58,545 nucleotides of DNA, taken from NCBI GenBank assembly GCA_013002205.1, contig JABDKN010000005.1, positions 1-58,545 of the forward strand, read 5' to 3'. Source of the DNA: Granulosicoccus sp. GTDB lineage: Bacteria; Pseudomonadota; Gammaproteobacteria; Granulosicoccales; Granulosicoccaceae. Positions 2,571 through 13,671 of this stretch are shown in pieces. The position numbers and the translations under genes are program-made. The notes beneath the pieces are model-generated. The model had not been told where the DNA came from. It made no database searches and saw nothing but the letters and a program-made list of their open reading frames with translations. How positions within the stretch are numbered: the first letter of the stretch is position 1; each line of letters starts with the position of its first letter.

Positions 2571-2816
2571 GATTGACTGCCTCGCTGTGTTAAGGGTGCG
2601 ATACTGCCAACATCGAGTTCATCATGCAGGCGCTGCGGCTGGCCGGCACGACGATGTATCGGTATCTGTGATCGGTTTGCACGTAGTTTACTTAAAACCC
2701 GTGCCTAAATACGGGAAATACTGCAAGGCAAGATTGTGGCGTCAATCTGTTTTCGCTACGATGGTCGCCGCACTACCTACCTTAGTTGTCAGACCCCTGT
2801 CACCGGAAACGATTTC
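2571..2816. promoter_or_regulatory. Divergent intergenic region between mtaB and the giant coiled-coil gene
   Basis: This 246-base gap separates two divergent genes and must carry both promoters. It contains a locally AT-rich stretch around 2685-2735. I see no convincing sigma-70 pair, palindrome or small gene. An in-frame ATG at 2736 would extend the downstream protein by 27 residues, but that extension is hydrophilic and not family-like. Confidence 0.4.
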
Positions 2817-5800
2817 ATGTTCAGAGATTTTGAGAAGACACCCAGCAAGTCTTCATACCAATTGAAATTCATTCTGGCTGCATTGACGCTCGTCGCATTG
2901 CTGGCCGCCTGGATATCCCGGTCCAATGTGGTCAGCGACTTGAAAAGCACCCAGTTCGAGCGTGACCAGGTCAATCTGTTGCTCGATGAACGAAATGAAG
3001 AGCTGGCAACGGCCGAACGCAACATTGGCAATCTGCGTAGTGAGCAGGCAGCTCTGGAAGAGGCCATCGCACAAAGCGAAGCCGAGCTCGAGGCATTGCG
3101 CGGGCAGGTAGCCGAGATGGATAGCGCCCGGGCAGATACTCAGAGTCTCCTGAGCAGTGCCCGGCAAACCCGCTCGGAGCTGGAGGAACAGGTGGCTGCA
3201 CTGACAGCCTCGCTGCAGAACATGCAGTCGCAGATGAACGAACTGGACAGACAGCGACAGGCGGCCGTGGAGGAGCTGCAGGGCGCAGTGGCTGGCTTTG
3301 ATGTGGAAGCCGATGCCAGGGTCACCGAACTCAGGGCACAGATCGAATCGTTCGACCTGCAGGCCGACGAACGGGTTGTACAGCTCCAGGCAGAGATCAG
3401 CTCATTGAAAGAGCAGATCTCGCAGCAGCAGGCGGCACTGGACGAACGGGCGGCGTTGGCAGAAGCAGCCGGTGCCGAGGTCCAGTCGCTGCTGTCGGCG
3501 AGCAGCTCCACCTCCGATGAACTGGTCTATGCGCAGACCAGTTACGATTCGCTACTGGCACTGTACGACACCGACGTCGCCGTCATGAGCGCCGAGATCG
3601 GTGATCTGCAGGCACGCAAGGCAGCTCTTGAACTCGAGATGGATAATCTGCATGGTCGGCTTGCTTCGGTCGAGGCTGAATTCGCCGAGTCGCGCAGCAA
3701 ACTGTCCAGAACTGAAGACACGCTGGCGCAGACAGAGTCGATGCTGAGTGAAACCGAAGACCGTCTTGCCGGCACCATCGATTCGCTGGAGAGCGCGAAG
3801 AAAAACCTGGCGCGTCAGAGCGTCAGCATGGCCACGGTCCAGGCTGACGTGTTCAGCACCCAGGGTGAACTGGAAGCGCAGATCGAACAGAAGAATCTCC
3901 GCCTGGCAGAGTTGCAGAAGGAATACTCGGCACTGGAAGAGCGCTATCAGAGTGCCCGGCAAACCATTGCTCAGAGCGAACACGACCGGGACGAGCTGAC
4001 CAGGCAGGTGCAAACCCTGCTGAGCTCGTCCAGGGACACCGGCAGTGAGCTCGAGGCGACACAGGCTGGCTATCAGACCCTGCGTTCGCAGTTCGACCAC
4101 GAGGTGATAGCACTGAATCTGGAGATCGGCGAGCTCGAGGCGCAGCGTATGGCGCTGCAAAGGGAAGTTGACGACCTGACCGTACAAGGTGAATCACTGC
4201 GCGCCGAAAAGGACCAGCTCACTTTCGCATTGCAGGACATGGAGCAACGACTGGACGAGGTGAAACAAGCCAGCGCAGAAGCGGCGGAGACCAGTACTGC
4301 GGAGATCCAGAGCCTCCAGGCTCAAATCGGTGGGCAACTTGAGAGTATGGAAAGCCAGGTGGTGGAGCTGCAGGCCAGCGTCAGCGGCTTGCAGCAGGAA
4401 AGAGCTGATCTGATTGCAGAACGTGACGCCCTGAGAATTTCGCTGGCTGAGCTGGATGCAGAAAACCAGGCACTGGCAACGGCACAGACGAAGCTGGAAT
4501 CCGAGCGCAATACGGCGGCTGAATCGATCGTCGCGCTCGAGGCTGAAGTGGGCGAATTACATGCCACCGTCGACATTCAGAAATCTGCACTGGATGAGTT
4601 GCGAGTCAGCAGCAACGCGCTTGAGGCCGAACTCACGGCGGCCCGTGCAATTTATGCCGATACACAGGCATCTTACGCCGAACAACTCGCGGAACTCGAA
4701 GCGACCGTCGATCTGCAGAATCCGACCATTACACAATTGCGGCGACGCAGTGCCGAACTGGAGCAGGAATTGGCCATGGCACGCTCCACCGCCGCGCAAG
4801 TCATGGAAAGCCAGGCTGCGGAGCTTGCGCAGGCTCAAGCCGGTGTTGAAGAACTGCAGAGCAATTATGATGCACAGCTGACAGAGCTACAGGCCACCAT
4901 CGACCTGCAGAAGCCTGCGATAGCAGAGCTGCGCAATCGCAACAGCTCCCTGGAAAGTGAACTGGGCACGGCTCGAGCTGAGCTGGTTGCTGCTGCCGGC
5001 ACGCAGAATGAACAGCTGGAAGCGGCCAGGGAGGCTGCCCGGGAGCAGACACTCGCCTATGAGGAACAACTGGCCGAACTGCAGGCGACCATCGACCTGC
5101 AGAAACCTGCATTGCAGGAGCTGCGCACCCGTAGTGCCGACCTGGATGAACAGCGGGCCCGGATGGCTGTCAGGGTGAGTACTCTCGAGGCGCAGCTTGA
5201 CGAAGCCCGGAGTGCGGACACTGCGCTGGCAGCGACCGAAACCGCTGCCGCAGAGCAGAAACTTGCCTACGAACAACAACTCGCCGAGTTGCAGGCGACG
5301 ATCGACCTGCAGAAGCCTGCATTGCAGGAGCTGCGCTCCCGTAGTGCCGACCTGGATGAACAACGGGCCCGGATGGCGGTACAGGTAAGTACACTGGAAG
5401 CTCAGATGAGCCAGATCCAGGGTGCACAGGATGCGCAGATGGCTGAAACCCTGGCTGAGATCGGCGAATTGCAGGCCACGATAGACCTGCAGGTTCCTGT
5501 CATAGCAGAACTGCGTAGCCGCAGCGCCTCCCTGGAAACTGAACTCGAGGCACGACAGCGGGTAATCTCGGGCCTGCAGGCGACCGTCAGTGAACAGGAA
5601 GCTGCCCTGGCGGAATTGCGCACGCGCAACGCCACCCTCGAGGATGAGCTGAGCGCCGCAAATGCCGAAATGGCCGAGCTGCAGGCAATCATCGAGCTGC
5701 AGAATCCGGCCATTGCCGAGCTGCGTGCACGCGCTGATGATCTGGATGGGCAACGCGTGCAACTGACAACGCGTGTTTCCGAACTCGAGATGCAGCTGGC

Positions 5801-7988
5801 AGCGGCCGAATCTGCCTCTGCCGACGCGCAACAACTGGCGACGCTGCAGTCTGAAAAATCCGACCTGCAGATGCAGCTTGATCAGATGCAGTCGCAGCTG
5901 GATTCCACGACAGCGCAATCCGCAGAGGAACTGGAACAATTGCGCGCCTCCATCGAGGAACTGGAGACGGTCAATGCCAGTCTGGGTGCCGCCAATGCGG
6001 AACTGCTGTCCGGCAGCGAGACGCTCGAGGAAGCCAATGTCTATCTTCGGGAGCGGGTCGATGCGCTGCGTGCTGAACGTGATGCGTCGCTGGAGCAATT
6101 AACCAACCTGGAGACCGAGCAGGCATCGCTCAACCGGCAGGTAGCCGAACTGGAGACCGAGAACGCCGATCTCGTTGCCCGGGTGTCCACACTTGACGCA
6201 GAGCGGGCTGCCATGCAGGAACAGCTGGCGACATTGGAGACAGAACGTGCAGAGCTGCAGGGTGAGCTGGACGCCGCGACTGCTGCCCTCGGTGAAGCCA
6301 CAGCTGCGAGTGAGACCCTCCAGGCTGACATGCAGAGCCTTGCAGATGAATTGGCACAGGTGACTGGCGAACGGGATAAGCTGCAGGCCGAGCTGGGCGC
6401 GGCGGGTGCCCGGATCGGCGATCTGGAGAGCCAGGTGGCCGTTTCGGCGGAGACCATGGAGAGTGATGCGAACACCATCGAGTCTCTGCAGAATGAACTG
6501 AATACGGTTCAATCAAGGGTCGCCGAACTGGAAACACAGCTGGCGTCGGCCACCGAGGCCTACGACAGTGCCACGGCAGCGGCAGGTGATGTCCAGCAGT
6601 TGCTGGACACCCGCAACGAGGAAAATAACGCCCTGGAGATGCAACTCGCCGAGTCGCAGACGCAGATGGGCGAGCTGCAGGCCCAGCTCGAGGCCGCAAG
6701 TGCCCGTATTGCTGACCTGGAAACACAGCTGGCCTCGGCCACCGAGGCCTACGACAGCGCCACGGCAGCGGCAGGTGATGTCCAGCAGTTGCTGGATACC
6801 CGTAACGAGGAAAAGAACGCCCTGGAGATGCAACTCGCCGAGTCGCAGACGCAGATGGGCGAGCTGCAGGCCCAGCTCGAGGCCGCAAGCGCCCGTAATG
6901 CTGACCTGGAAACACAGCTCGCGGATGCAGATGCACGACGCGCTGAACTGGAGTCGGAACTGACTGCAGTGCGGGGTGAACTGACTGAAAGTGGCAACCA
7001 GGTGCAGACGCTGCGCTCGACACTGGAAGCTGATACCGGCTCACTGTCTGAGCGCATCGGTGCGCTGGAGGGGGAAAAAGCAGATCTGGAGGCCGAACTG
7101 CAGGCTTCGATGGATGCACGCTCAGCGCTGCAAGGCGAGGTGGATTCGCTGCAGGGCCGGGTTGCAGAGATCGAAGTTGAACTGAATGCACTGGGTGCCG
7201 AAAAACAGGCCGTCGAGGCCAGTGTGGCTGAACTGGATGCTGCCAAGGCTGAGCTTGAATCGCAGCTTGGTGAGCTGGGCTCTGTCAAGGCTGAGCTTGA
7301 GTCGCAGCTTGGTGAGCTGGGTTCTGCCAAGGCTGAGCTTGAGTCGCAACTTGGTGAGCTGGGCTCTGCCAAGGCTGATCTGGAAGCGCGCCTGCTCGAT
7401 GCGGAGACCACGGCTGCCAGCCTGCGCGAGGAGTTGACGGCAAGTCGACGCAATGCCTCCGATCAATTGCTGCTGGCTGAAAACCTGGCAGCCAAACTGG
7501 CCTCGCTGCAGGGTCAGTCTCAAAGCGAACAGGCGAATGCAAATGCACTTCGAGACACCCTGGAGGCGAATCTGCAAGCCAACGGCGTCGAGGGCGTCAC
7601 GGTATCGGTTCGTGATGACGGCTCAATCGTCGTAAACCTGCCCAGCGAAGCGCTGTTCGATTCCGGACGTGCCCGCCTGAATGCTTCGGGTCGAAATCTA
7701 ATGACCCGTGTGGCGGCGGCACTGGCGAATATCGACAACGATATCGTGGCTGAAGGTCACACGGACAGTATTCCCGTGACAGGCGATCTGCTGGCCATCT
7801 ATCCGAGCAACTGGGAGTTGTCAGTGGCACGTGCTGCCAACACGGTCAATTTTCTGCAGAACCAGGGCGGTATCGAGGCCGATCGGCTCACGGCGCTGGG
7901 GTATGGGCAGCGTCGTCCAATCGCCCCCAACAACACGCGGGCGGGTCGTGCACTGAATCGCAGGGTGGAGTTGGTAGTCAAGCCTTGA
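2817..7988 (+). CDS. Giant coiled-coil, inner-membrane-anchored protein with C-terminal OmpA peptidoglycan-binding domain
   Basis: A 1723-residue protein when started at ATG 2817, chosen because a signal-anchor helix follows directly (residues 17-35, FILAALTLVALLAAW). Topology is thus N-in with a periplasmic body. About 1,550 residues are almost continuous heptad-type coiled coil rich in Glu, Gln, Ala and Leu. The last ~130 residues form an OmpA/MotB-type domain: LFDSGRARL, then EGHTDSIPV, then RALNRRVELVV, the expected peptidoglycan contacts. The coil contains three repeat classes: about eight copies of a ~27-residue motif ELQATIDLQxPxIxELR (4554-5710), a 63-residue tandem duplication (6531-6908) and a 14-residue repeat (7242-7390). 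The likely role is a long tether or spacer between inner membrane and cell wall; function is unknown. ubiX follows immediately. MotB itself is excluded by size and by the absence of motA. Confidence 0.85.
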   Translation: MFRDFEKTPSKSSYQLKFILAALTLVALLAAWISRSNVVSDLKSTQFERDQVNLLLDERNEELATAERNIGNLRSEQAALEEAIAQSEAELEALRGQVAEMDSARADTQSLLSSARQTRSELEEQVAALTASLQNMQSQMNELDRQRQAAVEELQGAVAGFDVEADARVTELRAQIESFDLQADERVVQLQAEISSLKEQISQQQAALDERAALAEAAGAEVQSLLSASSSTSDELVYAQTSYDSLLALYDTDVAVMSAEIGDLQARKAALELEMDNLHGRLASVEAEFAESRSKLSRTEDTLAQTESMLSETEDRLAGTIDSLESAKKNLARQSVSMATVQADVFSTQGELEAQIEQKNLRLAELQKEYSALEERYQSARQTIAQSEHDRDELTRQVQTLLSSSRDTGSELEATQAGYQTLRSQFDHEVIALNLEIGELEAQRMALQREVDDLTVQGESLRAEKDQLTFALQDMEQRLDEVKQASAEAAETSTAEIQSLQAQIGGQLESMESQVVELQASVSGLQQERADLIAERDALRISLAELDAENQALATAQTKLESERNTAAESIVALEAEVGELHATVDIQKSALDELRVSSNALEAELTAARAIYADTQASYAEQLAELEATVDLQNPTITQLRRRSAELEQELAMARSTAAQVMESQAAELAQAQAGVEELQSNYDAQLTELQATIDLQKPAIAELRNRNSSLESELGTARAELVAAAGTQNEQLEAAREAAREQTLAYEEQLAELQATIDLQKPALQELRTRSADLDEQRARMAVRVSTLEAQLDEARSADTALAATETAAAEQKLAYEQQLAELQATIDLQKPALQELRSRSADLDEQRARMAVQVSTLEAQMSQIQGAQDAQMAETLAEIGELQATIDLQVPVIAELRSRSASLETELEARQRVISGLQATVSEQEAALAELRTRNATLEDELSAANAEMAELQAIIELQNPAIAELRARADDLDGQRVQLTTRVSELEMQLAAAESASADAQQLATLQSEKSDLQMQLDQMQSQLDSTTAQSAEELEQLRASIEELETVNASLGAANAELLSGSETLEEANVYLRERVDALRAERDASLEQLTNLETEQASLNRQVAELETENADLVARVSTLDAERAAMQEQLATLETERAELQGELDAATAALGEATAASETLQADMQSLADELAQVTGERDKLQAELGAAGARIGDLESQVAVSAETMESDANTIESLQNELNTVQSRVAELETQLASATEAYDSATAAAGDVQQLLDTRNEENNALEMQLAESQTQMGELQAQLEAASARIADLETQLASATEAYDSATAAAGDVQQLLDTRNEEKNALEMQLAESQTQMGELQAQLEAASARNADLETQLADADARRAELESELTAVRGELTESGNQVQTLRSTLEADTGSLSERIGALEGEKADLEAELQASMDARSALQGEVDSLQGRVAEIEVELNALGAEKQAVEASVAELDAAKAELESQLGELGSVKAELESQLGELGSAKAELESQLGELGSAKADLEARLLDAETTAASLREELTASRRNASDQLLLAENLAAKLASLQGQSQSEQANANALRDTLEANLQANGVEGVTVSVRDDGSIVVNLPSEALFDSGRARLNASGRNLMTRVAAALANIDNDIVAEGHTDSIPVTGDLLAIYPSNWELSVARAANTVNFLQNQGGIEADRLTALGYGQRRPIAPNNTRAGRALNRRVELVVKP
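4554..5760 (+). repeat. Eight degenerate copies of a proline-bearing coiled-coil motif (protein-level repeat)
   Basis: Within the giant coiled-coil gene the motif E-L-Q-A-T-I-D-L-Q-x-P-x-I/L-x-E-L-R-x-R recurs, with copies starting near 4554, 4692, 4884, 5076, 5286, 5466, 5571 and 5680. Most copies carry a proline after DLQ (KP, NP or VP); the first and seventh lack it. Spacing is 35-70 residues, so the copies are dispersed rather than strictly tandem. Two copies near 5076 and 5286 share the long continuation LQELR-x-RSADLDEQRARMAV and are close at DNA level, which suggests recent duplication. Confidence 0.8.
6531..6908 (+). repeat. Near-perfect 189-bp tandem duplication inside the coiled-coil gene
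   Basis: Two adjacent 189-bp (63-codon) units begin with GAAACACAGCTGG at 6531 and 6720 and differ at only a few bases. A third partial start occurs at 6909. Each unit encodes ETQLASATEAYDSATAAA followed by GDVQQLLDTRNEE and a heptad-rich tail. The frame and heptad phase are preserved. The low divergence points to a recent slippage or unequal recombination event. Confidence 0.92.
7242..7390 (+). repeat. 42-bp tandem repeat (14-residue unit), about 3.5 copies
   Basis: The unit encodes AKAELESQLGELGS and repeats with a period of exactly 42 bases (unit starts near 7242, 7284, 7326 and 7368). Fourteen residues are two heptads, so each copy extends the coiled coil without breaking register. Copies are almost identical at DNA level, so length polymorphism between strains is plausible. 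Confidence 0.9.
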
Positions 7989-8014
7989 ACAATAAACCGG
8001 ATACCCACAGCGTC

Positions 8015-8671
8015 ATGGATCCAGACGCGATGCAGGTATCCGACGCAGAGCACCCGGCAGCATTTGACAAGACTGTTTGTGTCGCCATGACCGGAGCATC
8101 GGGCATTCAGTATGCGTTGCGGCTGATTGAATGCCTGATCAAGGCTGATTGCCGGGTCTATCTGCTTATCTCTAAACCGGCCCGCATCGTCATGGGGATG
8201 GATACCGATATCCCTGTTCCAGCACGAACCGCCCAGACGCAAAGCCAGTTTGCACAGATGTACAATGCGCGGACAGGGCAGTTGCGGGCGTTTGGCCAGG
8301 AAGAGTGGACAGCACCGGTAGCCAGTGGCTCAGGGGCGCCGGATGCCATGGTCATCTGTCCTTGTACCACGGGTACGCTGGCTTCCGTGGCCGCAGGTTC
8401 GTGTAACAACTTGCTGGAACGTGCGGCTGATGTGGTCATCAAAGAGGGCCGTAAACTGATCGTGATGCCACGGGAGATGCCGTTTTCACTGATTCATCTG
8501 GAGAATATGGCAAGACTGGCGCGGGCCGGCGTGGTGATCATGCCGCCTAATCCGGCCTTCTACCATCTTCCGGACACCATCGATGAACTGGTCGATTTCG
8601 TGGTGGCTCGGGTGCTGGATCAACTGGGTGTGAAGCAAAGTCTGATGACCCCCTGGGGCACGGAGAGCTAG
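8015..8671 (+). CDS. ubiX: Flavin prenyltransferase UbiX
   Basis: UbiX makes prenylated FMN from FMN and dimethylallyl phosphate, the cofactor for the UbiD decarboxylase in ubiquinone synthesis. Visible motifs are the N-terminal VAMTGASGIQYALRL nucleotide-binding loop, CPCTTGTLASVAAGSCNNLLERAADV and the PREMPFSLIHLENM segment, all typical of the family. The start is uncertain. The frame opens with TTG at 7985, overlapping the preceding stop; I chose ATG 8015 (218 aa), with ATG 8030 as an alternative. All leave a 15-35-residue N-terminal extension compared with typical UbiX. No clear ribosome site precedes any of them, so translation may be coupled to the upstream coiled-coil gene. Confidence 0.92.
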   Translation: MDPDAMQVSDAEHPAAFDKTVCVAMTGASGIQYALRLIECLIKADCRVYLLISKPARIVMGMDTDIPVPARTAQTQSQFAQMYNARTGQLRAFGQEEWTAPVASGSGAPDAMVICPCTTGTLASVAAGSCNNLLERAADVVIKEGRKLIVMPREMPFSLIHLENMARLARAGVVIMPPNPAFYHLPDTIDELVDFVVARVLDQLGVKQSLMTPWGTES

Positions 8672-8674
8672 CTG

Positions 8675-9253
8675 ATGCAACTTCCCCTGTTTCCGCTGAC
8701 CAGTATCGTCCTGCCCGGTGGTTTGATGCCACTGCGCCTGTTCGAGCGTCGTTACATCGACATGGTCAAGGACTGTTTCAAGAATGAGACCGGATTCGGC
8801 ATCTGCCTGATAAAGCGCGGCAGGGAGTCCGGAGAGGTATCCGAACCCTATCCACGAGGCACACGCGTCTCCATCGTCGATTTTGACCAGGGCAGCGACG
8901 GCCTGTTGCACATCACCGCTCGCGGTGAGGAGGAGTTTCGCCTGTTGACCTACGCCTCCACCGATGCCGGGCTGTTGATAGGCGAGGTCGAGCCTTTGCC
9001 ACGCAGGCCAGCAACGACGATGGAGCCGGAGTACGAACTGCTGTCGCAGAAGCTCGACCTGATTCTCAGCTATCTGGAGACTGACATCCGTTTCGAGGAA
9101 AAGCACCTGGATGATGCCGACTGGATCTGTCATCGCCTGCTCGAGGTTCTGCCGTTGACCGCCGAAGCGAAATTCGAACTGTTGCAGATGGACAGTAACC
9201 GCGAACGTCTGGCTGCGCTCAGCGCCTTGCAGATCGAAATCGCCGAACGTTGA
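8675..9253 (+). CDS. Stand-alone Lon N-terminal (substrate-binding) domain protein
   Basis: A 192-residue protein matching the LON substrate-binding domain found at the front of Lon proteases, with no ATPase or peptidase part. The beginning (LPLFPLTSIVLPGGLMPLRLFERRYIDMV) is the family signature, and the FGICLIKRG strand follows. Stand-alone versions are widespread in proteobacteria; no biochemical role is firmly known, though binding of unfolded segments is presumed. ATG 8675 follows the ubiX stop by three bases, with GGAGAG about eight bases before it, so the two are probably co-transcribed. It ends 23 bases before the convergent argA stop. Confidence 0.88.
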   Translation: MQLPLFPLTSIVLPGGLMPLRLFERRYIDMVKDCFKNETGFGICLIKRGRESGEVSEPYPRGTRVSIVDFDQGSDGLLHITARGEEEFRLLTYASTDAGLLIGEVEPLPRRPATTMEPEYELLSQKLDLILSYLETDIRFEEKHLDDADWICHRLLEVLPLTAEAKFELLQMDSNRERLAALSALQIEIAER

Positions 9254-9276
9254 CGGGCGATGCGGCTAGCTGCTGC

Positions 9277-10650
9277 TTACAAACCCTTCTGGTAGATCTT
9301 GGAATTGCGCTGCTGGTTGTAACTGGCGCGGCGTCTGGCGGGCAGATCATCCAGTGAGACCTCCGTATAGCCGCGAGCGACGAACCAGTGCCCGGTGTGG
9401 GTGCTCAGGATACGCGCCTGCCTGTACGATTGCTGGCGGGCAATGTCCTCAAGATGTGTGAGCAGCTGATCCGCCCGTCCCTGGCCTCGGTAGTCCGGGT
9501 GAGTGGCCATGCAGGCTATCTCTGCGGTCTGGCAATCCTCATCCAGGAACAGGGCGGCACAGGATACGATGGTGCCGTCGCGCTCACTGACCACGAAGCG
9601 GTTGATATCCAGTTCCAGCTCTTCCCGTGACCGGCTGACCAGCGTTCCCGACGCCTGCAGGGGAGCAATCAGCTCGATGATGCCGCCGACGTCGGAAATC
9701 GTGGCGGGTCGGATGTGTTCCCAGCGTTCTGCCGTGATCAGTGTGCCACTGCCATCACGGGTAAACAGTTCGCGAAGCAGCGCATTGGGGTCATCGCTGC
9801 GCAACAGATGGACACGCCCGACACCCTGTTTGCAGGCCTTGATGGCATTGGGCACTATCTGCATCATGCTCTGTTCTGCTGACCAGGCATGGCTGTTCGA
9901 TTGGCCGTCACGGTATTGCTCATCCTGCGACGATCGGGACGCAATAAAGGTACGTTCCAGTCGATCGGCACTGGCCTGGCGCATGATCGAACCATCCGGC
10001 TCACTCGGCAGCTGAGGGACCAGAAACACCAGCTTGTCCGCGCCCAGGGCAATGGCCGTCGCCGTCGCCACATCGGTCACCGTGACGTTGAAGACTTCAC
10101 CGGTCAGCGAGTAACCCAGAGGCGGCAGCAGTACCAGCTGTCCTGCGTCGAGCATCGTGCGAATGACCGCGTGATGGATTTCCCTGACCGCTCCGGTGTG
10201 CTGGAAGTCCACGCCATCATGCACGCCAAATGGTTGTGCAGTAACAAAATTGCCGGAGGTGACCGCCAGACGGGCACCGGCCATGGGTGTATTGGGAAGT
10301 CCCATGGACAGGCGTGCTTCCAGGTCGTTGCGTGCCAGGCCAGCCTCTGCGATCATCGCGTTCAGTGCTTGTCGATCCGTCACCCTGCGACCGGCGACGA
10401 TGTGGCTGGCTGCCCTGGCCTGCGCAAGCTGGTCATCGACCTGATCGCGTAGACCGAAACACAGCACCAGACGTAAACCTAAATGACTTAACAGGGTCAG
10501 ATCGTGTGTCAGGGTAGGTAACAGATCGCTTTTGAGTGCGCTGCCCGGCACGGCCAGAACCAGAGTCTTGCCGCGATGTGCGTTGATGTAGGGCGTGGCG
10601 GCTCTAAACCAGTTGATGGCTTCATCGGCACCGTGTGTCTGATTCGTCAT
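9277..10650 (-). CDS. argA: N-acetylglutamate synthase (amino-acid kinase plus GNAT domains)
   Basis: Catalyses acetyl-CoA + L-glutamate to N-acetylglutamate, the first step of arginine synthesis. At 457 aa it has the classical two-domain form. The N-terminal amino-acid-kinase-fold arginine sensor (residues ~20-290) includes VLAVPGSALKS and the GVDFQHTGAVREI stretch. The C-terminal GNAT acetyltransferase (~310-445) has the acetyl-CoA-binding loop in HPDYRGQGRADQLL. Length and the HTGAVREI motif match gammaproteobacterial ArgA rather than ArgB. The start is ATG at 10650 with only a weak ribosome site. It is monocistronic and divergent from the Nma111-like protease; feedback inhibition by arginine is expected from the family. 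Confidence 0.93.
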   Translation of the reverse strand: MTNQTHGADEAINWFRAATPYINAHRGKTLVLAVPGSALKSDLLPTLTHDLTLLSHLGLRLVLCFGLRDQVDDQLAQARAASHIVAGRRVTDRQALNAMIAEAGLARNDLEARLSMGLPNTPMAGARLAVTSGNFVTAQPFGVHDGVDFQHTGAVREIHHAVIRTMLDAGQLVLLPPLGYSLTGEVFNVTVTDVATATAIALGADKLVFLVPQLPSEPDGSIMRQASADRLERTFIASRSSQDEQYRDGQSNSHAWSAEQSMMQIVPNAIKACKQGVGRVHLLRSDDPNALLRELFTRDGSGTLITAERWEHIRPATISDVGGIIELIAPLQASGTLVSRSREELELDINRFVVSERDGTIVSCAALFLDEDCQTAEIACMATHPDYRGQGRADQLLTHLEDIARQQSYRQARILSTHTGHWFVARGYTEVSLDDLPARRRASYNQQRNSKIYQKGL

Positions 10651-10794
10651 GAAATTCAGTGGTAGCTGTTTCGGTCACTGTGCGCGGTGCGGTATTTCTC
10701 AACGCAGCCTATAGTAATTGTAGTGGACGTGGTACTGCGGGGGATCTGGAACACTTGTTGCGCAACATTGGGCAGTAATCGGGAGAGAGTAGTC

Positions 10795-13671
10795 GTGACA
10801 TTTATCGTGCCAGAGTGCCGTTTGCGGCCAAGTGCCCGTCAGCAGGTTCAGCAGGTATTGCCGTCGCTGATAATCTGCGCCTTGCTGTCCTGGGTAGCGC
10901 TGAGCCTCTGGCCTGATACGGCAGTTGCCAATTCTACGGAGGAAGACGGCTGGGCGCGGACGGTTTCGCGGGCCGCCGACTCGGTGGTTTCCCTGCAATT
11001 GTCCCAGTTACGAACCTTTGACGACTCCCTGCAGGGGGGCAGCAATGCCACGGGATTTGTCGTCGATGCTGAAAGGGGAATCGTGCTGACCAACAGACAT
11101 GTGGTCGGGTCCGGACCAATACGGCTCTCGGCCACTTTTCAGAACCAGGAACGGGTCGATGCAGTGCCCCTGTACCGTGATCCCATTCACGATTTTGCCT
11201 TTCTGCGCTACAACCCTGAGGATCTGCAATACGCTCGTCCCGCCTCGCTGCAGTTGCGTCCTGACAAGGTCAGCACCGGGATGAACATCCGCGTCATCGG
11301 CAGTGATGGTGGTGAGCAGTTGTCCATCCTGCCGGGCACCATTGCCCGGCTGGACCGGGAGGTACCCTCGTACGGACGCTATGGCTACAACGATTTCAAT
11401 ACCTTTTACCTGCAGGCTGCCTCGGGTACCTCAGGTGGGAGTTCCGGCTCTCCGGTGATCGATTTCGATGGCGACGTCGTCGCCCTGAACGCGGCTGCCA
11501 ATGTCAAGACCGCCAGCAGTTTTTTCCTGCCCCTGCCGCGTATTGCCCATGCCCTGGCGCAGTTACAGTCGGGCAAGGCCATCGAGCGTGGTGGATTCCA
11601 GACGCTGTTCGTGCACCAGCCATTCCGTGAGCTCAGGCGACTCGGGCTGGATCAGGCTACGGAGGATAGCGTCCGCGTGAACAATTATTCCACAACCGGC
11701 ATGCTGACCGTCGGGCAGGTCATTCCCGGCGGAGTTGCCGAGACGATACTGGAACCGGGGGATATCCTGATGTCGATTGCCGGCAGTCTGGTCACTGATT
11801 TCGTCAGCCTGGAGGCCCTGCTGGATGCCTCTATCGGCAAGACGCTCAGCGTGGACTTCATCCGCCAGGGAGTGGTGTCCACCGCTGGTATCAGGGTAGC
11901 CGATCTCAACGCACTGGCGCCGGACGAATTTCTGGAACTGGGTGACGCCATCCTGCAGGATATGTCGATTCAGCACGCCCGTGCGATGCATCGTGCTCAG
12001 CAAGGTGTGGTCGTGATGAATCCGGGCTACGTGTTCACCCGGGCCAATGTACCGAAGGGCGCGCTGATCATCGAGCTCGAAGGCCGTCCAGTTCACGATA
12101 TCGAGCAGTTCATGGAAGCTCTGGGCGAAACCGCCGGCGTGCTCAAGAAGCGCGTGCGATACATCGTCCCGGGCCGCGAGTTCAGCTCCGAGCTTGCGCA
12201 GATCCAGATCGATGATCGCTGGTTCAGGAACCGGGCCTGCGTACGCGTGGACGATGCCCGTTTCTGGGAATGCAGGGAGGTGAAACTACCGGTCGCCGAT
12301 GCGCGAAAGCCAGCCGATCTGGTCAGTGTGCCGACCTACAGGGATAAGCTGCTGGACCAGGTGGCGCCTGCCATGACACGCGTCGATTTCAGTATTCCGT
12401 ACGCTGCTGACAACGTCTATGCCCGGCATTTCAAGGGCGTAGGCATCGTGGTCGACAAGGAAGCCGGATTGATTGCAGTCGATCGCAACACGGTACCCAT
12501 CGGTCTGGGGGACGTGGAGATCACGTTCTTCGGCTCGCTGGTCATTCCCGGTGAGGTGGTATTCCTGCATCCTCGCCACAACCTGGCGCTGGTCAGATAC
12601 GATACCGCACAGCTGCAGGGAGCCCGCTTCCAGGCCGTCACACTCAGTGAGTCGAATACAGCGTTGCCTGCGGAACTGACCATGATCGGCTACCGTGCCG
12701 ACGGCACCTTCCGGCGTCATCCCATCGACGACATCAGTCGCCTGACCATCGGGTTCAATGCACCCGGATTACCGCGATTTCAGCAGTCGGCAATCGATGT
12801 GTATGGATTGCCCAACGTGCCGCCTTCGCTCGGCGGTCCTCTGGTCGATGAACGGGGTGTGGTGCACGCCGTGTACATGAGTTTCGCCTATGAGGAGGAC
12901 CGCGAGATACGTCAGCGTGAATGGGCCATGCCCGCGGCACTGATTCGGGAATCTCTGCGCATCTACCGCTCCGGGGTGCCGTATTATTCCCTGGATGCCC
13001 GTCTGTCCTACCAGCCACTGTCCGTGGCGCGCCAGTATGGACTGCCGGATGACTGGTTACTTCGTTACAACGAGCTGCCGGCCGACATACGGCGTGTGCT
13101 GTATGTAACCCAGCTGGTGCCCGGTACGGACGCTGCCGGCAAGCTGGTCTCAGGTGACATGATCCTGGCCATCGATGATCAGCTGGTTTCCGAGCTGTTT
13201 ACCGCAGAGACTCTGGCCCAGCGCCCTGCCATCGAGCTGACCCTGCTGCGAGGCGGTAAACTCATGAGTGTGGAAATTGCACCGTCGGAACTGGATACGC
13301 TGGGTACCCGACGAATCGTCAGTTGGTCCGGAGCGACTTTCCAGAGCCCCTTTACTGACATCAGCTACCAGAAAGCCGTGAATTTTCCTGGCGTCTACAT
13401 CGCAGACACCGAGGATGGATCGCCGGCAATCTGGGATGGCTTGTATCGCAACCGATTCGTGGTTGCCGTCGACGGTCAGCCGGTCGAGGACCTGGACGGT
13501 TTCGTCGATCTGGTCAGTGAACTCGAGCAGGATCAGATAACCCGTCTGACGGTCATGTCCATGAGTGGGCGAAAGCAGATTATCACCGTGCAGCCCGAGT
13601 ATAATTTCTGGCCTACGTTCGAGCTCAGGCGAGGTCCGGATGGCTGGGCGCGCTTCAGCCATCTGCACTGA
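10795..13671 (+). CDS. Large periplasmic double trypsin-like/PDZ serine protease with Nma111-like architecture
   Basis: A 958-residue exported protein when started at GTG 10795, chosen for its GGGAGAG ribosome site and the signal peptide that follows (hydrophobic core LIICALLSWVALSLW, likely cut after AVA). The first HtrA-like domain has an intact triad: His102 in LTNRHVV, Asp133 in IHDFAFLRY, Ser217 in TSGGSSGSPV. PDZ-like segments follow. A second trypsin-like domain (12.4-12.9 kb) is degenerate: AVDRNTV in place of the His motif, RHNLALVRY in place of the Asp motif and PSLGGPLV at the Ser position. Two further PDZ-like regions end the protein. An active first domain, an inactive second one and multiple PDZs recall eukaryotic Nma111, whose active site is similar. 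A role in envelope protein quality control is inferred. Confidence 0.87.
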   Translation: MTFIVPECRLRPSARQQVQQVLPSLIICALLSWVALSLWPDTAVANSTEEDGWARTVSRAADSVVSLQLSQLRTFDDSLQGGSNATGFVVDAERGIVLTNRHVVGSGPIRLSATFQNQERVDAVPLYRDPIHDFAFLRYNPEDLQYARPASLQLRPDKVSTGMNIRVIGSDGGEQLSILPGTIARLDREVPSYGRYGYNDFNTFYLQAASGTSGGSSGSPVIDFDGDVVALNAAANVKTASSFFLPLPRIAHALAQLQSGKAIERGGFQTLFVHQPFRELRRLGLDQATEDSVRVNNYSTTGMLTVGQVIPGGVAETILEPGDILMSIAGSLVTDFVSLEALLDASIGKTLSVDFIRQGVVSTAGIRVADLNALAPDEFLELGDAILQDMSIQHARAMHRAQQGVVVMNPGYVFTRANVPKGALIIELEGRPVHDIEQFMEALGETAGVLKKRVRYIVPGREFSSELAQIQIDDRWFRNRACVRVDDARFWECREVKLPVADARKPADLVSVPTYRDKLLDQVAPAMTRVDFSIPYAADNVYARHFKGVGIVVDKEAGLIAVDRNTVPIGLGDVEITFFGSLVIPGEVVFLHPRHNLALVRYDTAQLQGARFQAVTLSESNTALPAELTMIGYRADGTFRRHPIDDISRLTIGFNAPGLPRFQQSAIDVYGLPNVPPSLGGPLVDERGVVHAVYMSFAYEEDREIRQREWAMPAALIRESLRIYRSGVPYYSLDARLSYQPLSVARQYGLPDDWLLRYNELPADIRRVLYVTQLVPGTDAAGKLVSGDMILAIDDQLVSELFTAETLAQRPAIELTLLRGGKLMSVEIAPSELDTLGTRRIVSWSGATFQSPFTDISYQKAVNFPGVYIADTEDGSPAIWDGLYRNRFVVAVDGQPVEDLDGFVDLVSELEQDQITRLTVMSMSGRKQIITVQPEYNFWPTFELRRGPDGWARFSHLH

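What the first reader, a model, noticed from the sequence alone, without database searches (positions are those of the whole stretch)
10795..13671. Bacterial protein with Nma111-like double HtrA architecture
The first protease domain keeps the His-Asp-Ser triad with a GTSGGSSGSPV active site, the second has lost all three, and PDZ-like domains are interspersed. That plan is best known from fungal/plant Nma111-type proteases, not DegP/DegS. A bacterial secreted version may illuminate the origin of that family.
Basis: partly seen in the sequence, partly recalled or inferred. Interest (0 to 1): 0.6.

Follow-up and report, generated by a model that had tools for sequence, protein, structure and literature searches.

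The report
Bacterial double HtrA protease (Deg7/Nma111 family)
A gammaproteobacterium and many of its relatives export a large protein-quality-control protease made of a working half and a dead copy of that half, the same layout as yeast Nma111 and plant Deg7, which suggests that the eukaryotic enzymes were inherited from bacteria already in this doubled form.

Summary
ORF 10795-13671 (+) encodes 958 aa: signal peptide, active HtrA protease domain PD1 (H102/D133/S217, GGSSGSPV), PDZ, PDZ_1, pseudo-protease PD2, PDZ, PDZ_1. The triad is intact in 81/81 aligned homologues; PD2 has Asn/Asn/bulky-hydrophobic in 81/81. The order equals published plant Deg7. AlphaFold2 gives pLDDT 88, pTM 0.85. It is not an oddity: it is a single-copy core gene of its order (46/48 genomes) and occurs in 22/321 sampled Gammaproteobacteria. 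PD1 and PD2 each form a clade outside ordinary DegP/DegQ proteins (100/100). Their long Asp-Ser spacing (84, 83) matches a published fungal Nma111 orthologue (83), not ordinary Deg (73-74). With Deg7 and Nma111 sequences recalled from memory (a lead, not a test), both halves match end to end; eukaryotic PD1 joins bacterial PD1 and PD2 joins PD2, so the duplication would predate the split. Apparently undescribed: the bacterial branch is exported and has an invariant cysteine pair, probably a periplasmic disulfide. Likely function: periplasmic ATP-independent quality-control protease, trimerised by PD2 (inferred). No conserved partner gene was found. A bacterial link for yeast Nma111 was already published.

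The parts
10795..13671 (+). double HtrA protease gene, 958 aa (GTG start; alternative GTG at 10687 gives 994 aa)
   Evidence: full-length homologues
10795..10932 (+). N-terminal signal region (hydrophobic LPSLIICALLSWVALSL then AVA), residues 1-46
   Evidence: hydrophobic stretch in 77 of 79 homologues that reach this region
10951..11568 (+). PD1, active trypsin-like domain, residues 53-258; H102 at 11098-11100, D133 at 11191-11193, S217 at 11443-11445
11596..11904 (+). PDZ1, residues 268-370
   Evidence: PDZ_6 E 1.9e-5 on the fragment; model secondary structure
11905..12174 (+). PDZ2 (Pfam PDZ_1 type), residues 371-460
   Evidence: PDZ_1 E 4.8e-10
12238..12273 (+). hairpin between the halves with invariant cysteines C482 and C493, predicted disulfide
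   Evidence: C in 81/81 at both positions; the only two Cys after residue 50 in 62/81
12346..12975 (+). PD2, pseudo-protease domain, residues 518-727; N565 at 12487-12489, N596 at 12580-12582, L679 at 12829-12831
   Evidence: Trypsin_2 E 6.5e-6 on the fragment; N/N/hydrophobic; second half alone folds and hits DegP, prob 1.00
12997..13290 (+). PDZ3, residues 735-832
   Evidence: PDZ E 0.0056 on the fragment, below the curated cut-off; model
13291..13629 (+). PDZ4 (PDZ_1 type), residues 833-945
   Evidence: PDZ_1 E 1.6e-8

Best explanation
The gene encodes an exported, most likely periplasmic, ATP-independent serine protease of the double-HtrA (Deg7/Nma111) family. A PD-PDZ-PDZ_1 unit was duplicated head to tail once, long ago. 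The first copy stayed an active protease; the second lost its whole triad but stayed under constraint (Asn/Asn in all 81 nearest members). By analogy with plant Deg7, the dead domain holds the protein together as a trimer, while the PDZ domains recognise misfolded or exposed segments of envelope proteins and pass them to PD1 for cleavage; it may also act as a holdase chaperone. A conserved cysteine pair between the halves would form a disulfide in the oxidising periplasm. Shown: domain order, triad and pseudo-triad, export-type N-terminus, clades separate from ordinary Deg proteins, conservation across lineages. Inferred: periplasmic location, proteolysis of misfolded envelope proteins, trimerisation by PD2, the disulfide. 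Supported only by recalled sequences: common ancestry of both halves with Deg7 and Nma111.
For: Domain order and confident model (pLDDT 88, pTM 0.85). The second half alone also models well (pLDDT 87.5) and matches DegP over 439 columns. Triad 81/81, pseudo-triad N/N 81/81. PD1, PD2 and ordinary Deg each form a clade in a careful ML tree (100/99, 99/91, 100/100). Asp-Ser spacing 84 (PD1) and 83 (PD2) against 73-74 in ordinary Deg; a published N. crassa Nma111 orthologue has H120/D151/S234, i.e. 31 and 83 (PMC3434108). Same order as Deg7, whose inactive domain mediates trimerisation (PMC3473262, PMC4754418). Hydrophobic signal-type N-terminus in 77/79 and invariant Cys pair in 81/81. Core gene in 46/48 genomes of the order. 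Lead from memory: a recalled Arabidopsis DEG7 of exactly the published length, 1097 aa, gives blastp E 4e-101 (40%) for the first half and 2e-49 (29%) for the second; a recalled yeast Nma111 gives 32% over 929 aa, E 4e-143, and the tree puts eukaryotic PD1 with bacterial PD1 (100/99) and eukaryotic PD2 with bacterial PD2 (99/96).
Against: No protein was assayed. Trimerisation by the dead domain rests on one plant protein. Neighbouring genes differ between lineages (argA and ubiH-like in Granulosicoccaceae, gcvPA/gcvPB and an M23 peptidase in Woeseiaceae) and give no functional partner. The ordinary Deg set in the tree is 15 proteins from Pseudomonadota, without animal, cyanobacterial or actinobacterial HtrA.
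Confidence: 0.75

Rival explanations
1. An independent bacterial duplication of an ordinary DegP/DegQ-type gene that only looks like Nma111/Deg7 (convergent architecture).
For: Tandem duplication of an HtrA gene is easy in principle; the solved-structure matches are ordinary single-unit HtrA proteins; no eukaryotic sequence could be fetched.
Against: Both domains lie outside ordinary Deg (100/100). NCBIfam's Do-family model scores 114.5 bits against a cut-off of 416. The long Asp-Ser spacing is shared with the published N. crassa Nma111 orthologue. With recalled sequences, grouping plant PD2 with the PD1 clade is rejected (p-AU 7e-8).
Confidence: 0.08
2. A gammaproteobacterial ancestor took the gene from a eukaryote, so the bacterial copies are secondary.
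For: Double forms were found only in Gammaproteobacteria here; direction cannot be read firmly without real eukaryotic diversity and other phyla.
Against: The bacterial family is diverse, spans at least 13 families of the class and is near-universal in the window's order. Single-unit relatives with the same GGSSGSPV site exist in another class of Pseudomonadota. With recalled sequences, eukaryotic PD2 sits inside bacterial diversity (96/85).
Confidence: 0.12
3. Same protein and family, but PD2 is not a trimerisation module: it is a substrate- or regulator-binding pseudoprotease, or the whole protein is chiefly a chaperone.
For: PD2 changes faster than PD1 (mean pairwise identity 0.49 against 0.72); yeast Nma111/Ynm3 has chaperone activity (PMC4877387).
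Against: The invariant triad in PD1 argues for retained proteolysis; Deg7's inactive domain mediates trimerisation (PMC3473262).
Confidence: 0.35

Closest known systems
Plant Deg7 (AtDeg7, At3g03380)
   Same: PD-PDZ-PDZ-PDia-PDZ-PDZ, about 1,000 aa, active first and dead second protease domain (PMC3473262, PMC4754418); a sequence recalled from memory aligns over both halves
   Different: Deg7 is a chloroplast stromal enzyme; the bacterial form has a signal peptide and an invariant Cys pair that the recalled Deg7 sequence lacks
Fungal Nma111/Ynm3
   Same: PDZ_1 domains (PMC5982838); triad spacing 31/83 in the N. crassa orthologue (PMC3434108) against 31/84 here; a recalled yeast sequence aligns over 929 aa
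   Different: Nuclear in fungi (PMC11596484); the bacterial form is exported
DegP/DegQ (Do family)
   Same: HtrA fold and PD-PDZ-PDZ unit
   Different: Single unit, GNSGGP active site, Asp-Ser spacing 73-74; the window protein is far below the family cut-off
Single-unit GGSSGSPV HtrA of small-genome Pseudomonadota (L114-L125)
   Same: Same active-site motif, PD plus two PDZ-like regions, on the PD1/PD2 side of the tree against ordinary Deg
   Different: One unit only, Asp-Ser spacing 75

Membership tests
Double HtrA (Deg7/Nma111) | PD-PDZ-PDZ-inactive PD-PDZ-PDZ order | tested here: met
   definition from PMC3473262
Double HtrA (Deg7/Nma111) | First domain with complete His-Asp-Ser triad | tested here: met
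   81/81
Double HtrA (Deg7/Nma111) | Second domain with mutated triad | tested here: met
   N/N/hydrophobic
Double HtrA (Deg7/Nma111) | Triad spacing of the fungal orthologue (31/83) | tested here: met
   31/84 in 80 of 81 and 31/83 in one; N. crassa 31/83; ordinary Deg 30/73-74
Double HtrA (Deg7/Nma111) | Sequence homology of both halves to the eukaryotic members | tested here: inconclusive
   Strong with sequences recalled from memory, but these are leads; no database copy could be fetched
Double HtrA (Deg7/Nma111) | Trimerisation through the inactive domain (shown for Deg7) | not testable with these tools
   needs purified protein
Do family (DegP/DegQ) | Score above NCBIfam TIGR02037 cut-off | tested here: not met
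   114.5 bits against 416.2
Do family (DegP/DegQ) | Protease domain inside the ordinary Deg clade | tested here: not met
   100/100 separation

The most novel reading that the evidence does not exclude
The eukaryotic Nma111/Deg7 proteases descend from a gammaproteobacterial double HtrA that had already duplicated and lost its second active site in the periplasm; moving it into the nucleus and chloroplast cost it the signal peptide and the cysteine pair.
Probability: 0.5. Interest if true: 0.6.

Novelty: new member of a known kind. Interest (0 to 1): 0.42.

Why it matters
The double HtrA plan was explained in plants as a gene duplication and fusion followed by decay of the second domain, and in fungi it is known as a nuclear apoptosis protease. 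A widespread bacterial branch with the same plan and the same dead second domain would move the duplication back before these eukaryotic lineages, give the family an original job in envelope quality control, and offer a bacterial protein for solving the first structure of a double HtrA. No solved structure of one was found among the matches seen.

Tried and rejected
A viral-contig scan with the family profile found no relatives. Plasmids hold only partial, ordinary DegP/DegQ-type matches. No Nma111 or Deg7 is among the listed PDB matches. Paper searches for active-site peptides found nothing. Schuhmann 2011 (Deg7 trimer) and Padmanabhan 2009 (Ynm3) are not held. Gene neighbourhood gave no partner. 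Other phyla could not be sampled with the genome search because the centre must be a genome handle. PDZ_1 (PF12812) alone does not mark the family: ordinary DegP-like proteins match it weakly. Whether PD1 and PD2 are sisters, or PD1 is nearer the single-unit proteins, is not resolved by the trees (p-AU 0.478; support 55/0); the shared long Asp-Ser spacing favours PD1 plus PD2.

Full report
OBSERVATION. The ORF at 10795-13671 (+) is real and intact. Pfam finds two Trypsin_2 stretches, two PDZ_1 stretches and two further PDZ domains. Cut into pieces the order is PD1, PDZ, PDZ_1, PD2, PDZ, PDZ_1. The N-terminus is a basic stretch, a hydrophobic core and AVA, a Sec-type signal as read from the sequence; a comparable hydrophobic stretch is present in 77 of 79 homologues that reach that far.

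CATALYTIC RESIDUES. In 81 aligned homologues PD1 keeps His, Asp and Ser without exception; S217 sits in GGSSGSPV. PD2 has Asn for His and Asn for Asp in 81/81, and Leu, Phe, Val, Tyr, Ile or Met for Ser. In the window PD2 reads PSLGGPL, close to the ordinary NSGGPL loop but with Leu for the nucleophile. A wider set shows a few other states, including one S-N-S, still without a triad.

FAMILY. A genome-collection scan found 507 related stretches; the 80 best are full-length doubles whose titles name Gammaproteobacteria or unspecified Proteobacteria. It is present in 46 of 48 genomes of the window's order, in one copy or in contig-split pieces (the other two may be assembly gaps). It occurs in 22 of 321 genomes sampled across the class, in at least 13 family codes. 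In 190 genomes of one other class of Pseudomonadota no double was found, but single-unit proteins with the same active site occur there in small genomes.

STRUCTURE. AlphaFold2 on 65 family sequences gives mean pLDDT 88.3 and pTM 0.85 for residues 47-958. The second half alone gives 87.5 and 0.86. Foldseek matches both to DegP, DegQ and plant Deg2/Deg9. No solved double HtrA was seen.

PHYLOGENY. A careful ML tree of 65 protease domains separates ordinary Deg, PD1, PD2 and the single-unit group, each with strong support. The Asp-Ser spacing is 84 in most PD1, 83 in most PD2, 75 in single units and 73-74 in ordinary Deg. A published N. crassa Nma111 orthologue has 83 (PMC3434108).

EUKARYOTIC LINK. 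No eukaryotic sequence could be fetched. I therefore typed Arabidopsis DEG7 and yeast Nma111 from memory. The DEG7 string has exactly the published length of 1097 aa (PMC4754418). The Nma111 string has 996 aa, one short of the length I remember, so it holds at least one error. Both align to the window over both halves. In the tree eukaryotic PD1 joins bacterial PD1 and eukaryotic PD2 joins bacterial PD2. This survives removal of long branches, and placing plant PD2 with the PD1 clade, as an independent duplication would have it, is rejected. In the literature, yeast Nma111 groups with plant chloroplast proteases, and some bacterial proteins are nearer to it than to human HTRA (PMC5982838).

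BACTERIAL SPECIALITIES. Two cysteines, C482 and C493, on a hairpin between the halves are invariant in 81/81 and are the only cysteines after residue 50 in 62/81. With the signal peptide this suggests a periplasmic disulfide. The recalled eukaryotic sequences lack the pair at that place.

FUNCTION. Inferred: envelope quality control. PD1 cuts, PDZ domains deliver substrate, PD2 holds the trimer as in Deg7 (PMC3473262; PMC4754418). Neighbouring genes are mostly housekeeping and change between lineages, which fits a stand-alone protease.

VERDICT. A sound observation with a sound interpretation. The architecture is known; the bacterial branch is widespread and apparently undescribed in detail in the papers I could search. 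Interest is moderate, and rises if database eukaryotic sequences confirm that both halves are shared.

Noticed in passing
2736-7988 (+): 1750-aa ORF with long coiled-coil regions and a C-terminal OmpA domain, with matches upstream of the protease in most Granulosicoccaceae loci; possibly a peptidoglycan-anchored envelope filament.
   Followed up: partly
L114-L125: Single-unit HtrA proteins with a GGSSGSPV-type site in small genomes of another class of Pseudomonadota, the nearest non-double relatives found.
   Followed up: partly
L041-L088: In Woeseiaceae-type genomes the double HtrA follows the split glycine dehydrogenase genes gcvPA-gcvPB and often precedes an M23 peptidase with DUF4124.
   Followed up: partly
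L112, L113: Very diverged doubles in two genomes: PD2 is much degraded and lacks the DRNTVP motif.
   Followed up: no
7985-10650: UbiX-like flavoprotein, LON substrate-binding-domain protein and ArgA-like gene form a conserved block beside the protease in Granulosicoccaceae.
   Followed up: partly
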